Source: Ostrinia nubilalis (taxonomy: Eukaryota > Arthropoda > Insecta > Lepidoptera > Crambidae). Taken from it: a stretch of DNA of 64,000 bases. A model generated the notes under the pieces. That model worked only from the letters and a program-made list of their open reading frames with translations. It ran no database searches and had not been told where the DNA came from. The DNA lies in assembly GCF_963855985.1 (NCBI RefSeq), contig NC_087093.1, positions 15,639,001-15,703,000 on the forward strand, given 5' to 3'. Positions 13,701 through 25,700 of this stretch are shown piece after piece; the stretch's first letter is position 1, and every line of letters begins with the position of its first letter. The translations under genes were made by a program, and so were the position numbers.

Positions 13701-16700
13701 ATGCATTTCCTCCGCCATTTTCCGCAGTTTGGCACCTCACGTCACATCATTTTACCGAAGTCAGCCCTATAGCTTCGGCGCAGTGCCGATCACTGACGTT
13801 TGTCAACAAAATGGTGCTTGACTCTTGAGACAGGCTAAATTACACCATATTGTTAATGACATTGAGCATACATTTTTTAAAATACCTTCGCGAAGTAAAA
13901 CTTCTGTACGCAGTACTTATTATTATTCTGTGGTAATACCTTGTCTCGGTAAAGAAATCATCTTTTAATATTATATTTTTTTTAATAATTTAAGGTGTAC
14001 TGGGGCAACGGCTGTCAGATCATAGCGCCGCACGACCAACTCGTGCTGGAGGAAATCGAGCAGTGCTTGGAGTGAGTAGATGTGACATTATGTTGCTTTT
14101 CTAAGGTTTCATAGTTATCAACCAGTTGCAGTCTAGTGTATAATATACTCCCAAGCCACTTTCGGCTACGGTAACTACGACAAAATTCCTTTAGTCTGCA
14201 ATAAGAGGGCTACGCTGGGCTGCCCTATCATGTGCCCTCACATGGCTACAGTAGCCAGTCTTGTTGGTAAACGTGCGCGAACAATGTCGACACGTTAGGA
14301 CACCGCTGATGTAGTTGTAAGTGATAGCCGTACGCAGACATAACCCAATATAGTGCGTAAAAGTGCAAGGCAAGATGTACCACATTTTTCTCATGTTCGT
14401 CCAGTGACTGCCTGCCATCTTCTTGACATCGTCAGTCCATCGTGCTGAGGAATGTTTATTCAAAGTCAAAGTCAAAGTCAAAATTTCTTTATTTGTTTAG
14501 ACTAATAAATAGTTCTTACAAATCGTCATATGCTCTTAAGGAGCCTCTACATGTCTCATAATCTTTTTACCCTACCAGCGCTTCGAGACCAACATTTGGC
14601 AAGTGCTGAGAAGAAGCGCCGCAACAAACTCACTCTCTATTATTTTACTAGAGTTAATATCTCTGTAAGAATGATTAGTTCGCGTAGTTTGAAAGTTATT
14701 AGCTATTCTGAAATTCTGGCGATGTGCACCCAGAATTGGAACGACTTACAGGGCAGATATGTACCATCCTAGACTGCATCCCACTTAACATCAGGTGCGA
14801 TTGTGGTCAAATACCTGCCTTGTTATGCATAAAAAAAAAAAAAAAAACTTTCAATATTTTTCTTCAGTACTGTTTTAATAGGAATGCTTATTAATCTCAT
14901 TATAGCATACCAGAAGAACACTGGAACATCGATGAGATCCGATCCCATCCCCTAGTCACCGACTGCTTAGATGAGGCCACGACGAAGTACATGGAATACA
15001 TCCGCAGCTCGCTACACCCAGACATTCTAGAGACGAACAAGAAAGCAGCAATAGATACTGTGTACAGCGCTATGCACGGCGTTGGTTATAAATACATTGT
15101 TAAAGCATTCGAAGCCGCTAACTTGAAGGTGAGTTTGTTCTTTAAAAAGTTATTCCTTCACATAATAAACAAAAATAAAATTAATCTAAAATAAATATTT
15201 ATACTTGCTATGAGTCTATGAGTACCTCCTACAATGTCCAAAATATCCAAATTACCGTAACTTTTTGTATGCAGTCTGACAGATTTTTGACGTTTGTCAA
15301 AGTTAATGTAAGATGGTGCAACTCAGCCTTAAATAGTTTAAGTTTAGAGATCACACGATAGGAGAAGAAAATACGACCAATATTATTAGATCGTGACCTC
15401 AATAGTATTAGCGAGGCTACTCCGAAAAACATCCGAAGTTTCGAATGTTGCCATCCCTCTCACGCAAGGCGAGATGCCAGCATGAGCGATGGTGACAGAT
15501 AGACCCGAAACTATGTTAATAATATTTCGGAGTAGACCTGCAGGTCTCTTCTAAAAGCAAACCACAAGCTAGAGAAGATGATGCATGTAACCAAATGTTA
15601 CATGCATCATTTTTAGATAATAATGGTGTAACCATAGAGATCTAGAGAGATGCCTACTAATGCGCTGAGTTCGAAACTCAGTGTCGCATTAGAAATTCAC
15701 ACACACAAGTAATCAAAATTTGTGCTTATCCACTGCGGTGTCAGTACTCAACGTTCGAATAATCTTTAGTACTACGCAAGTAATGTAAACTGTTTACATT
15801 ATGACGTCGCTGCTGTCATCATTGCTTTCACGAGCAATGTGTTCTGTTATTGGACATATAGCTGCGACCCCGGCCTCGCCCCCTTGTCACATCTCCCTTT
15901 AGTTTCTGTGATCGGTAGGTGTAATGGTGCGTCCACACTGGGCGAACGGGCTCGCGCGGCAAACTCGACATCCTGCTCACTCAAGAGCAGTGTGAGCAGG
16001 ATGACCAGCGTGCCGCGCGAGTCCGTTCGCCTACTGTGGACGCACCATTACAACCCGTTCGCGCTAAGTTTGCCGGTCCGTGGAATGCCTCCTCCAACCG
16101 CGATGAAACGCAATAAGTTAGTGATTAACCGCAATTAATGTGTCTTATTTTACGCAAATAGACAATTTTTATCATTAATAAATAAAAAATATTTTAAATA
16201 GGTATAGTTTGTTAAAGTTATAGACGCTTTCCTTCGAGTGACGTCATATCGCCAGCGGCAAACTTATCGCGAACGGATAGTACCGTGTCCGTGATTAAAA
16301 ATAAAATTAACATAATTTTCAGCTGCCAATAAGCGTGCCCGAACAGCAAGAGCCGGACCCGTCGTTCCCGACAGTAGTGTTCCCCAACCCCGAGGAGCCT
16401 GCGTGCTTGGAGCTCAGCACTGGCCTGGCCGAGCGGAGCGCCGCGCGCCTGCTGCTGGTCAACGACCCCGACGCCGACCGCCTGGCCGTCGCCGAGCGGG
16501 ACCACAGGTCTAGGGAGCTGCTCTCTTAGCAACAAGTGTCTTTCAGCAACAAGCGAGTCTCTAAAAGGCGACTTCCAGCACCAGCTAGTCTCTAAAAGGC
16601 GACTTCCAGCAACAATAGTCTCTAAAAGGCGACTTCCAGCAACAATAGTCTCTAAAAGGCGACTTCCAGCAACAATAGTCTCTAAAAGGCGGCTTCCAGC

Positions 16701-22700: not shown

Positions 22701-25700
22701 TTCCAGCAACAAGCTAGTCTCTAAAAGGCGACTTCCAGCAACAATAGTCTCTAAAAGGCGACTTCCAGCAACAATAGTCTCTAAAAGGCGACTTCCAGCA
22801 ACAATAGTCTCTAAAAGGCGACTTCCAGCACCAGCTAGTCTTTAAAAGGCGACTTCCAGCAACAATAGTCTAAAAGGCGACTTCCAGCAACAAGCTAGTC
22901 TCTAATAGGAGACTTCCAGCAACAATAGTCTCTAAAAGGCGACTTCCAGCAACAAGCGAGTCTCTAAAAGGCGACTTCCAGCAACAATAGTCTCTAAAAG
23001 GTGACTTCTAGCACCAGCTAGTCTCTAAAAGGCGACTTCCAGCAACAAGCTAGCCCCCAATAGGCATCTTCCACATTGCTTTCTGGCTCCCAATAAGCGT
23101 GCCCCAGCAAGAGCCAGAGCCGTCGTTCCCGACAGTAGTGTTCCCCAACCCCGAGGAGCCTGCGTGCTTGGAGCTCAGCACTGGCCTGGCCGAGCGGAGC
23201 GCCGCGCGCCTGCTGCTGGTCAACGACCCCGACGCCGACCGCCTGGCCGTCGCCGAGCGGGACCACAGGTCTAGGGAGCTGCTCTCTTAGCAACAAGTGT
23301 CTTTCAGCAACAAGCGAGTCTCTAAAAGGCGACTTCCAGCAACAAGCTAGTCTCCAAAAGGCGACTTCCAGCAACAATAGTCTCTAAAAGGCGACTTCCA
23401 GCATCAAGCTAGTCTCTAAAAGGCGACTTCCAGCACCAGCTAGTCTCTAAAAGGCGACTTCCAGCAACAATAGTCTCTAAAAGGCGACTTCCAGCAACAA
23501 TAGTCTTTAAAAGGCGACTTCCAGCACCAGCTAGTCTCTAAAAGGCGACTTCCAGCAACAATAGTCTTTAAAAGGCGACTTCCAGCAACAAGCGAGTCTC
23601 TAAAAGGCGACTTCCAGCAAAAGTTAGTGTCTAAAAGGCGACTTCCAGCAACAATAGTCTCTAAAAGGCGACTTCCAGCAACAAGCTAGTCTCTAAAAGG
23701 CGACTTCCAGCAACAAGCTAGCCCCCAATAGGCATCTTCCACATTGCTTTCTGGCTCCCAATAAGCGTGCCCCAGCAAGAGCCAGAGCCGTCGTTCCCGA
23801 CAGTAGTGTTCCCCAACCCCGAGGAGCCTGCGTGCTTGGAGCTCAGCACTGGCCTGGCCGAGCGGAGCGCCGCGCGCCTGCTGCTGGTCAACGACCCCGA
23901 CGCCGACCGCCTGGCCGTCGCCGAGCGGGACCACAGGTCTAGGGAGCTGCTCTCTTAGCAACAAGTGTCTTTCAGCAACAAGCGAGTCTCTAAAAGGCGA
24001 CTTCCAGCAACAAGCTAGTCTCTAAAAGGCGACTTCCAGCAACAAGCTAGCCCCCAATAGGCATCTTCCACATTGCTTTCTGGCTCCCAATAAGCGTGCC
24101 CCAGCAAGAGCCAGAGCCGTCGTTCCCGACAGTAGTGTTCCCCAACCCCGAGGAGCCTGCGTGCTTGGAGCTCAGCACTGGCCTGGCCGAGCGGAGCGCC
24201 GCGCGCCTGCTGCTGGTCAACGACCCCGACGCCGACCGCCTGGCCGTCGCCGAGCGGGACCACAGGTCTAGGGAGCTGCTCTCTTAGCAACAAGTGTCTT
24301 TCAGCAACAAGCGAGTCTCTAAAAGGCGACTTCCAGCAACAAGCGAGTCTCTAAAAGGCGACTTCCAGCACCAGCTAGTCTCTAAAAGGCGACTTCCAAC
24401 AACAATAGTCTCTAAAAGGCGTCTTCCAGCAACAAACGTCTCTAAAAGGCGACTTCCAGCACCAGCTAGTCTCTAAAAGGCGACTTCCAGCAACAATAGT
24501 CTCTAAAAGGCGACTTCCAGCAAAAGTTAGTGTCTAAAAGGCGACTTCCAGCAACAATAGTCTCTAAAAGGCGACTTCCAGCAACAAGCTAGTCTCTAAA
24601 AGGCGACTTCCAGCAACAATAGTCTCTAAAAGGCGACTTCCAGCAACAATAGTCTCTAAAAGGCGACTTCCAGCAACAAGCTAGCCCCCAATAGGCATCT
24701 TCCACATTGCTTTCTGGCTCCCAATAAGCGTGCCCCAGCAAGAGCCAGAGCCGTCGTTCCCGACAGTAGTGTTCCCCAACCCCGAGGAGCCTGCGTGCTT
24801 GGAGCTCAGCACTGGCCTGGCCGAGCGGAGCGCCGCGCGCCTGCTGCTGGTCAACGACCCCGACGCCGACCGCCTGGCCGTCGCCGAGCGGGACCACAGG
24901 TCTAGGGAGCTGCTCTCTTAGCAACAAGTGTCTTTCAGCAACAAGCGAGTCTCTAAAAGGCGACTTCCAGCAATTAAATAGTCTCTAAAAGGCGACTTCC
25001 AGCAACAAGCTAGCCCCCAATAGGCATCTTCCACATTGCTTTCTGGCTCCCAATAAGCGTGCCCCAGCAAGAGCCAGAGCCGTCGTTCCCGACAGTAGTG
25101 TTCCCCAACCCCGAGGAGCCTGCGTGCTTGGAGCTCAGCACTGGCCTGGCCGAGCGGAGCGCCGCGCGCCTGCTGCTGGTCAACGACCCCGACGCCGACC
25201 GCCTGGCCGTCGCCGAGCGGGACCACAGGTCTAGGGAGCTGCTCTCTTAGAAACAAGTGTCTTTCAGCTGTGCAATGTTGGGCGTTTGTTCACTTTTCAC
25301 CTAATTTTTAATTTATTTTATTTCACTTTGTTTATTCCAAACCATCTATTCAGCGCTGCGTGAGCAGCACTGACAGGGTCGCCATGCAATGTTGGGTGTC
25401 GGGACGATTAAATAAGTAGAGTGACTGCATATTAAGAGCCCATTTATTAAGAGTGTATAACCTTATTACTACCTATGGGACGTGAGTGTGTGCGTAGTGA
25501 CGCGCATACTACAGCTGCAAGATAGTCGTCGATAAGCATCTTCTAGCAACAAGCATCGTCACATAGGCTTATTAAAGAGATTATTCTAGCCATCAATAAG
25601 CGTTTATAGCCATTGAGTCTGTCTCGCACTCTCACTGCGGGCGCCCGTCGCACAGTCGCGACAGCAATATAATTACGCGCGAGCGATAAGGATAGGTAGC

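What the first reader, a model, noticed from the sequence alone, without database searches (positions are those of the whole stretch)
16323..25256. An essential coding exon amplified into a 17-copy array inside its own gene
PGM2 exon 7, which carries the DPDADR metal loop, is followed in intron 7 by 16 further copies. They are almost identical to each other and all keep the coding sequence free of stops up to the donor. They sit in a 30-bp minisatellite that appears derived from the intron directly downstream of exon 7 (TTTCAGCAACAAG units). An enzyme active-site exon captured as the unit of a satellite-like array is unusual. Homogeneity suggests recent expansion or ongoing gene conversion.
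Basis: seen in the sequence. Interest (0 to 1): 0.88.

Follow-up and report, generated by a model that had tools for sequence, protein, structure and literature searches.

The report
Catalytic exon array inside its gene
In a corn-borer moth, one exon of the sugar-phosphate enzyme gene PGM2 is followed in its own intron by 16 copies that lack the exon's splice acceptor, so they are likely silent, yet share 171 identical bases with the working exon, which suggests that the array exchanges sequence with that exon and would slowly rewrite a catalytic part of the enzyme.

Summary
An intact 14-exon PGM2 gene (product 607/607 identical to Ostrinia nubilalis phosphopentomutase) carries exon 7 (16323-16507) plus 16 copies in intron 7, separated by a 30-32-bp minisatellite. 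A 171-nt stretch is identical in all 17. The copies' upstream flank matches intron 7 beyond the array, and the join is a 9-bp shared word (CAATAAGCG) that starts 4 nt inside exon 7. So the copies were probably born acceptor-less by tandem duplication and are probably skipped; the annotated O. nubilalis protein has one exon 7. The same unit is encoded in an O. furnacalis gene model. Between two duplicated 1.1-kb blocks, spacers differ at 8 of 621 sites and exon units at 0 of 513, which points to homogenisation after duplication. The working exon is over-diverged and its changes lean to GC, as if the array writes back into it. The closest known kind is chicken 'exon stuttering' (2026). This is a moth variant with a nearly whole catalytic exon and apparent feedback on the gene. 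PGM2 exon repeats also appear in two other moth gene models. RNA and long reads are untested.

The parts
4776..31919 (+). PGM2 (phosphopentomutase) gene, coding exons 1 to 14, 607 aa
   Evidence: exon model by hand with splice sites checked, open frame; Pfam; identical to P0016
16323..16507 (+). native exon 7 (185 nt, starts in phase 0, ends in phase 2) with acceptor TTTTCAG and donor CAG|GTCTAG
16359..16529 (+). 171-nt stretch of the native exon and donor side that is identical in all 17 copies
16327..16335 (+). CAATAAGCG, proposed duplication breakpoint inside exon 7
   Evidence: only match outside the array besides 25594, both strands
16508..25781 (+). intron 7, 9274 bp, mostly array
16744..16925 (+). 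exon 7 copy 2
17102..17283 (+). exon 7 copy 3
17520..17701 (+). exon 7 copy 4
17938..18119 (+). exon 7 copy 5
19681..19862 (+). exon 7 copy 6
20010..20191 (+). exon 7 copy 7
20644..20825 (+). exon 7 copy 8
21002..21183 (+). exon 7 copy 9
21363..21544 (+). exon 7 copy 10
21721..21902 (+). exon 7 copy 11
22049..22230 (+). exon 7 copy 12
23087..23268 (+). exon 7 copy 13
23755..23936 (+). exon 7 copy 14
24084..24265 (+). exon 7 copy 15
24718..24899 (+). exon 7 copy 16
25047..25228 (+). exon 7 copy 17, last of the array
25540..25602 (+). intron 7 segment homologous to the flank upstream of each copy, ends in CAATAAGCG (25594)
   Evidence: score 41; 0 of 412 other window segments and 0 of 1000 shuffles reach it
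19714..20847 (+). block A (copies 6-8)
23788..24921 (+). block B (copies 14-16), duplicate of block A; spacers 8/621 different, exon units 0/513
7813..7868 (+). copy of the 3' end of exon 2 with its donor, in intron 2 (others at 8132-8188 and 9054-9075)
   Evidence: 87.7 to 95.5% identity

Best explanation
PGM2 exon 7 and 16 intronic copies of it form one array whose members share 171 identical bases, and it likely arose by a tandem duplication that began inside the exon, so that the copies have the donor but not the acceptor, are predicted to be skipped by splicing, and would keep exchanging sequence with the working exon. Proposed steps. (1) Inferred from the sequence: the word CAATAAGCG, 4 nt inside exon 7, recombined with the same word in intron 7, giving a copy that is preceded by intron 7 sequence in place of the acceptor. 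(2) Inferred: related AGCAACAAG-type words in the intron seeded the 30-32-bp minisatellite, and unequal exchange multiplied exon-plus-minisatellite units. (3) Shown: some whole blocks were duplicated, and after one such duplication the spacers, not the exon units, diverged. Inferred from that: exon units are preferentially homogenised by conversion or exchange. (4) Inferred: the tract includes the working exon from nt 37 on, and GC-leaning conversion has shifted its amino acids. (5) Predicted, untested: mRNA joins native exon 7 to exon 8 over the whole array.
For: 171 nt identical in 17 of 17 copies, working exon included, against 9 variant sites-by-copy in 2032 nt of adjoining flanks. Block pair: 0/513 exon, 8/621 spacer, p = 0.0096. 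Acceptor absent in 16 of 16 copies. Flank homology to intron 7 at 25540-25602, score 41, 0 of 412 control segments (maximum 32) and 0 of 1000 shuffles (maximum 33); intron 6 upstream of the native exon gives 20, near background. Breakpoint word unique outside the array. Best AG within 85 nt upstream of the copy cores scores -3.4 or lower in 16 of 16, native 4.0. An in-frame TAG lies 13 codons upstream of the exon-start equivalent in copy 2. O. nubilalis annotated protein has one exon 7. O. furnacalis model P0015 holds 7 exon-7-derived segments, one of them 70/70 identical to the translated window unit with its acceptor-less flank. In P0015 the native 5' end occurs once as PEQQEPDP and once as PEQQEPEP, the second having the array's E, as if the conversion boundary moved. 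Working exon 7: Ostrinia-only changes 12/62 against 25/545 in other exons, p = 1.1e-4; Loxostege 2/62 against 31/545. GC-raising to GC-lowering changes 12:2 against 26:27, p = 0.016. GC3 53/61 against 368/547, p = 0.0012.
Against: No RNA or reads were seen. AGs farther up in the minisatellite score up to 4.0, equal to the native acceptor, and 0.9 in many spacers, close to the real exon 6 acceptor (1.1), so cryptic use is not excluded (the matrix rests on 12 sites). AATAAG|CGT would give an in-frame 171-nt exon and the O. furnacalis model joins copies in that register, though it scores -8.5. Exons 5 and 9 have GC3 almost as high (0.84, 0.82; exon 7 0.87), Ostrinia-Loxostege identity is almost as low in exon 12 (0.69 against 0.68), and by GC class of residues the Ostrinia exon 7 z is only 2.6, below 15 other species-exon cells. 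The block test rests on 8 differences. Three spacer families are themselves identical between copies (162 and 102 nt, 0 differences). The intron 7 segment could be a decayed array unit, not the source.
Confidence: 0.68

Rival explanations
1. Youth only: a very recent burst of unequal crossing-over made the copies, and they are identical because they are new; the working exon was merely the template and receives nothing back.
For: Identity of all 17 over 171 nt; spacers 1, 3, 4 identical over 162 nt and spacers 2, 8, 10 over 102 nt.
Against: Block pair with 8 spacer and 0 exon differences; the same unit in an O. furnacalis gene model, so the array is older than one population; GC-leaning over-divergence of the working exon; array-type residue E in one P0015 form of the native exon.
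Confidence: 0.18
2. Used exons: copies are spliced in, as in-frame 57-aa additions through AATAAG|CGT or as alternatives to exon 7.
For: 171-nt exon, phase 2 to 2; 16 of 16 copies open, 17 of 17 donors; the O. furnacalis 969-aa model strings copies together.
Against: That acceptor scores -8.5; the model is labelled LOW QUALITY and also repeats exons 4-6; annotated O. nubilalis protein has one exon 7; copies are identical, so alternatives would add no variety; synonymous sites are as invariant as the rest.
Confidence: 0.06
3. Assembly artefact: the array is wrong or its exon units were made identical by polishing.
For: No raw reads available; exon units are exactly identical.
Against: Spacers differ in length and sequence between copies; the same unit is in a model from another Ostrinia assembly.
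Confidence: 0.05
4. Mobile minisatellite: a dispersed repeat or Helitron-like element carrying these units landed beside exon 7 and picked it up.
For: Moth genomes are rich in such elements (recalled); unit arrays resemble element-internal repeats (inference).
Against: The only clear relative of the flank in the 64-kb window is in the same intron; no match to one unit word in viral contigs, a poor test. The whole genome could not be searched.
Confidence: 0.08

Closest known systems
Exon stuttering on chicken dot chromosomes (PMC12954441, Genome Biol Evol 2026; passages seen)
   Same: Border part of an exon with its splice site copied many times into the neighbouring intron, amid simple repeats and of local origin; 20-187 bp of exon (median 36), 1-44 copies (median 4), spans 112-23,555 bp.
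   Different: Here 178 nt per copy, close to the top of that range, and 16 copies in a moth gene; exon units are identical while that paper calls its repeats imperfect; that paper says the exon itself is not altered, whereas here the working exon seems homogenised with the array and GC-shifted.
Mutually exclusive exon arrays (Dscam, PMC1397879, listing and abstract only; Gr39a, PMC2204066, passages)
   Same: Tandem copies of one exon inside one gene.
   Different: Those copies are diverged and used. These are identical and lack an acceptor.
Conversion between duplicate exons 26a/26b of newt Nav1.4 (PMC8476164, passages)
   Same: Non-allelic conversion changes a working exon from a duplicate of itself.
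   Different: Two used copies about 180 kb apart, changes under selection; here 16 probably silent copies and no sign of adaptive change.
Coding minisatellites such as the Prdm9 zinc-finger array (PMC3890296, listing and abstract only)
   Same: Exon-borne tandem repeat with rapid turnover.
   Different: There the repeat is translated; here it is intronic.

Membership tests
[quoted passage not shown]
   16 copies of exon 7 in intron 7; also exon 2 tail in intron 2
Exon stuttering (PMC12954441) | copied part reaches the exon border and carries the adjacent splice site | tested here: met
   donor CAG|GTCTAG in 17 of 17
Exon stuttering (PMC12954441) | local origin, tandem clusters in a repeat-rich intron | tested here: met
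Exon stuttering (PMC12954441) | repeats imperfect | tested here: not met
   exon units identical; only the spacers are imperfect. Described for one intron in that paper, so not taken as strictly defining
Exon stuttering (PMC12954441) | intron length varies between individuals | not testable with these tools
   one assembly only
Mutually exclusive exon array | each copy has its own acceptor and donor | tested here: not met
   TTTCTGG in place of TTTTCAG in 16 of 16 copies
Mutually exclusive exon array | copies encode different sequences | tested here: not met
Mutually exclusive exon array | one copy chosen per mRNA | not testable with these tools
   no RNA data
Helitron or other mobile carrier of minisatellites | copies at other genomic sites with element ends | not tested
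   genome search did not complete

The most novel reading that the evidence does not exclude
A silent intronic array of acceptor-less copies acts as a permanent donor for its own parent exon: conversion keeps 16 copies and the working exon in step and drives GC-leaning change in the catalytic exon of a conserved enzyme. PGM2 is a recurrent site for this in moths: exon 7 in Ostrinia, an exon 8/9 unit in Operophtera and Mythimna, an old exon 2 case in the same Ostrinia gene, and perhaps exon 7 in Plodia, where the residue changes lean to GC most strongly (19:1).
Probability: 0.4. Interest if true: 0.85.

Novelty: new variant of a known kind. Interest (0 to 1): 0.66.

Why it matters
It would show that an exon can be turned into satellite-like DNA inside its own gene without loss of the gene, because the duplication left the acceptor behind. 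If the array converts the working exon, a non-coding repeat shapes an enzyme's active-site region by a biased DNA process and not by selection. It gives an insect case, with a readable birth scar, for a process that was described in chickens in 2026 with an unknown mechanism.

Tried and rejected
Shared word TTTCAGCTG (16317 and 25262) as the duplication point: rejected, because the copies' upstream flank matches intron 7 up to CAATAAGCG and no copy has TTTCAGCTG. Strand structure as a driver: the exon unit folds no better than shuffles (z 0.21) and no four-run G or C motif of the usual pattern is in exon 7 or the first spacer. Solved-structure search with exon 7 alone gave 0 matches; the full protein gave 47, all distant. 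Minisatellite word in viral contigs: 0. Control: 8 hand-placed pieces of the neighbouring minus-strand gene, with 60-nt flanks, show no copies elsewhere in the window at E 0.01; placement was by eye and only one piece was confirmed as PDEase. Third protein search added no further exon-repeat PGM2: 3 of the 200 proteins held have internal repeats, all three moths; the lists are capped at 120 rows of far more hits. Alignment tests used 45 of the proteins listed, picked by hand; repeat-bearing, partial and some other moth rows (P0015, P0018, P0044, P0052, P0059, P0065-P0069, P0078) were left out, and seven unnamed rows were taken as moths from their rank and identity. Literature: ten searches; none listed a PGM2 exon array, and only PMC12954441 holds 'exon stuttering' or 'sequence stuttering'.
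Full report
What is there. The window holds a complete PGM2 (phosphopentomutase) gene on the plus strand, 14 coding exons at 4776-31919, 607 aa, no internal stop, with PGM_PMM domains I-III. The best full-length match is 'phosphopentomutase [Ostrinia nubilalis]', 100% over 100% (P0016; sequences), so the window is O. nubilalis or something very close. Exon 7 is 16323-16507, 185 nt, phase 0 to 2, and encodes the DPDADR loop (metal-binding by recall of the family).

The array. A 133-nt exon core occurs exactly 17 times; identity in all 17 covers 171 nt, from 16 nt left to 22 nt right of the core. 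Distances between copies run from 328 to 1743 bp because the spacers hold from few to many 30-32-bp units. Copies 2-17 differ from the native exon in its first 36 nt: three substitutions and a lost codon, that is LPISVPEQQEPDPSFP in the gene and LPISVPQQEPEPSFP in the copies. All 45 moth proteins aligned have the longer form in this stretch except that no row shows the copies' loss, so the copies carry the derived state. All 16 copies are open, all 17 donors are present, and the native TTTTCAG is TTTCTGG in 16 of 16 copies.

Birth of the array. The 64 nt before and across the start of each copy match intron 7 at 25540-25602, right of the array: local alignment score 41, against a maximum of 32 in 412 other 522-bp segments (both strands) and 33 in 1000 shuffles. 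Without the last 14 nt the query still beats 1000 of 1000 shuffles (32 against 28). Intron 6, which truly precedes exon 7, scores 20, near the background mean of 18. The match ends in CAATAAGCG at 25594. That word lies at 16327, 4 nt inside exon 7, and outside the array nowhere else in the window on either strand. The simplest reading is a tandem duplication between these two words. It puts intron 7 sequence, without an acceptor, in front of a copy that starts inside the exon. It is also possible that 25540-25602 is a decayed unit of the array; the acceptor-less start holds either way. A tandem copy with both splice sites would add 185 nt, not a multiple of three, and would shift the frame, so acceptor-less copies are those expected to be tolerated (inference).

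Splicing. With a small matrix from 12 acceptors of this gene, the native acceptor scores 4.0 and real ones 1.1 to 15.4. The best AG within 85 nt upstream of the copy cores is -3.4 to -4.4 in 16 of 16; AATAAG|CGT scores -8.5. Farther up, in the minisatellite, single AGs reach 4.0, so cryptic use is not excluded. In copy 2 a TAG lies 13 codons upstream of the exon start in its frame. The exon 7 donor is the weakest of 13 (1.9; the others 2.9 to 10.1). AATAAG|CGT would give a 171-nt in-frame exon, and the O. furnacalis model joins copies in that register, but it is labelled LOW QUALITY and also repeats exons 4-6. The annotated O. nubilalis protein has one exon 7. I expect skipping; no RNA was seen.

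Homogenisation. Blocks 19714-20847 and 23788-24921 are duplicates of equal length (1134 bp) and plan: 8 of 621 spacer sites differ, 0 of 513 exon-unit sites, Fisher p = 0.0096. Next to the exon units, 9 variant sites-by-copy occur in 2032 nt of flanks and 0 in 2907 nt of exon unit; these variants cluster, so this is only supportive. Against it, some spacers are identical too. Synonymous sites are as invariant as the rest, so protein-level selection is not the cause.

Other species. P0015 (O. furnacalis, 969 aa, 33-kb contig) holds 7 exon-7-derived segments. One, with the PIGIFHIAFW flank, is 70/70 identical to the translated window unit, so the acceptor-less unit is shared by the two species' assemblies. 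Its native 5' end occurs as PEQQEPDP and as PEQQEPEP, the second with the array's residue. Operophtera brumata P0078 has 7 copies of a 47-aa exon 8-end/exon 9 unit, and Mythimna separata P0018 has two of a 52-aa one. These are 3 of 200 PGM2 proteins held, all moths. Assignment to exons 8/9 is by comparison with the window's exons; DNA of these species was not seen and assembly or model error is possible.

Feedback on the gene. Against 45 moth proteins, Ostrinia-only changes are 12 of 62 in exon 7 and 25 of 545 elsewhere (p = 1.1e-4), Loxostege 2 of 62 and 31 of 545 (p = 0.56). Ostrinia exon 7 is the fourth most over-diverged of 630 species-exon cells (18 seen, 8.9 expected); Plodia exon 7 is the first (26, 11.8). 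Changes that raise against lower codon GC at positions 1 and 2: Ostrinia exon 7 12:2 against 26:27 elsewhere (p = 0.016), Plodia 19:1 against 37:39 (p = 9e-5), Loxostege 3:2 against 34:27. GC3 is 53/61 in exon 7 and 368/547 elsewhere (p = 0.0012). Results against: exons 5 and 9 have GC3 of 0.84 and 0.82, exon 12 is almost as diverged between Ostrinia and Loxostege, and by residue GC class Ostrinia exon 7 has z 2.6, below 15 listed cells of other species.

Second case in the gene. In intron 2 the 3' end of exon 2 with its donor recurs at 7813-7868, 8132-8188 and 9054-9075, 88-96% identical. It too has the donor side only. The neighbouring gene shows none.

Known kinds. The nearest is exon stuttering on chicken dot chromosomes (PMC12954441; passages). 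It is the only paper in the library with that term. It states that the exon is not altered and that mechanisms are speculative. The case here fits its definition and adds a nearly whole exon, identity with the working exon, a readable breakpoint and signs of feedback. Mutually exclusive exons are excluded by the missing acceptors and missing diversity.

Verdict. Real, explained in outline, and a new variant of a recently described kind. Shown: anatomy, flank homology, acceptor loss, block test, shared unit in O. furnacalis. Inferred: order of events, conversion, feedback. Untested: RNA, reads, population variation, rest of the genome.

Noticed in passing
7718-9075: Intron 2 of PGM2 holds diverged copies of the 3' end of exon 2 with its donor (7813-7868, 8132-8188, 9054-9075; another likely near 8861 by eye).
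   Followed up: partly
28088-29028: Intron 11 of PGM2 holds a fold-back element (arms 28088-28153 and 28963-29028, 98% complementary) whose interior is a 67-bp tandem repeat of 11.7 copies.
   Followed up: partly
5465-7137: Intron 1 of PGM2 holds a long inverted repeat, 769-nt arms, 94% complementary, 135 nt apart; looks like a mariner-type remnant (recalled).
   Followed up: partly
10-3853: BEL/Pao retroelement reading frames upstream of PGM2 (Peptidase_A17, RVT_1, Integrase_H2C2, DUF5641).
   Followed up: partly
33436-37820: Minus-strand gene; one exon matches PDEase_I.
   Followed up: partly
53044-53565: Minus-strand reading frame with a Ribonuclease_T2 domain.
   Followed up: partly
P0041 (Plodia interpunctella): Exon 7 region is the most over-diverged of 630 species-exon cells and its changes lean to GC 19:1, without any known array; the record is named isoform X2.
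   Followed up: partly
16508-16513: Exon 7 donor GTCTAG is the weakest of 13 in the gene by a small matrix, and the array repeats it 17 times.
   Followed up: partly
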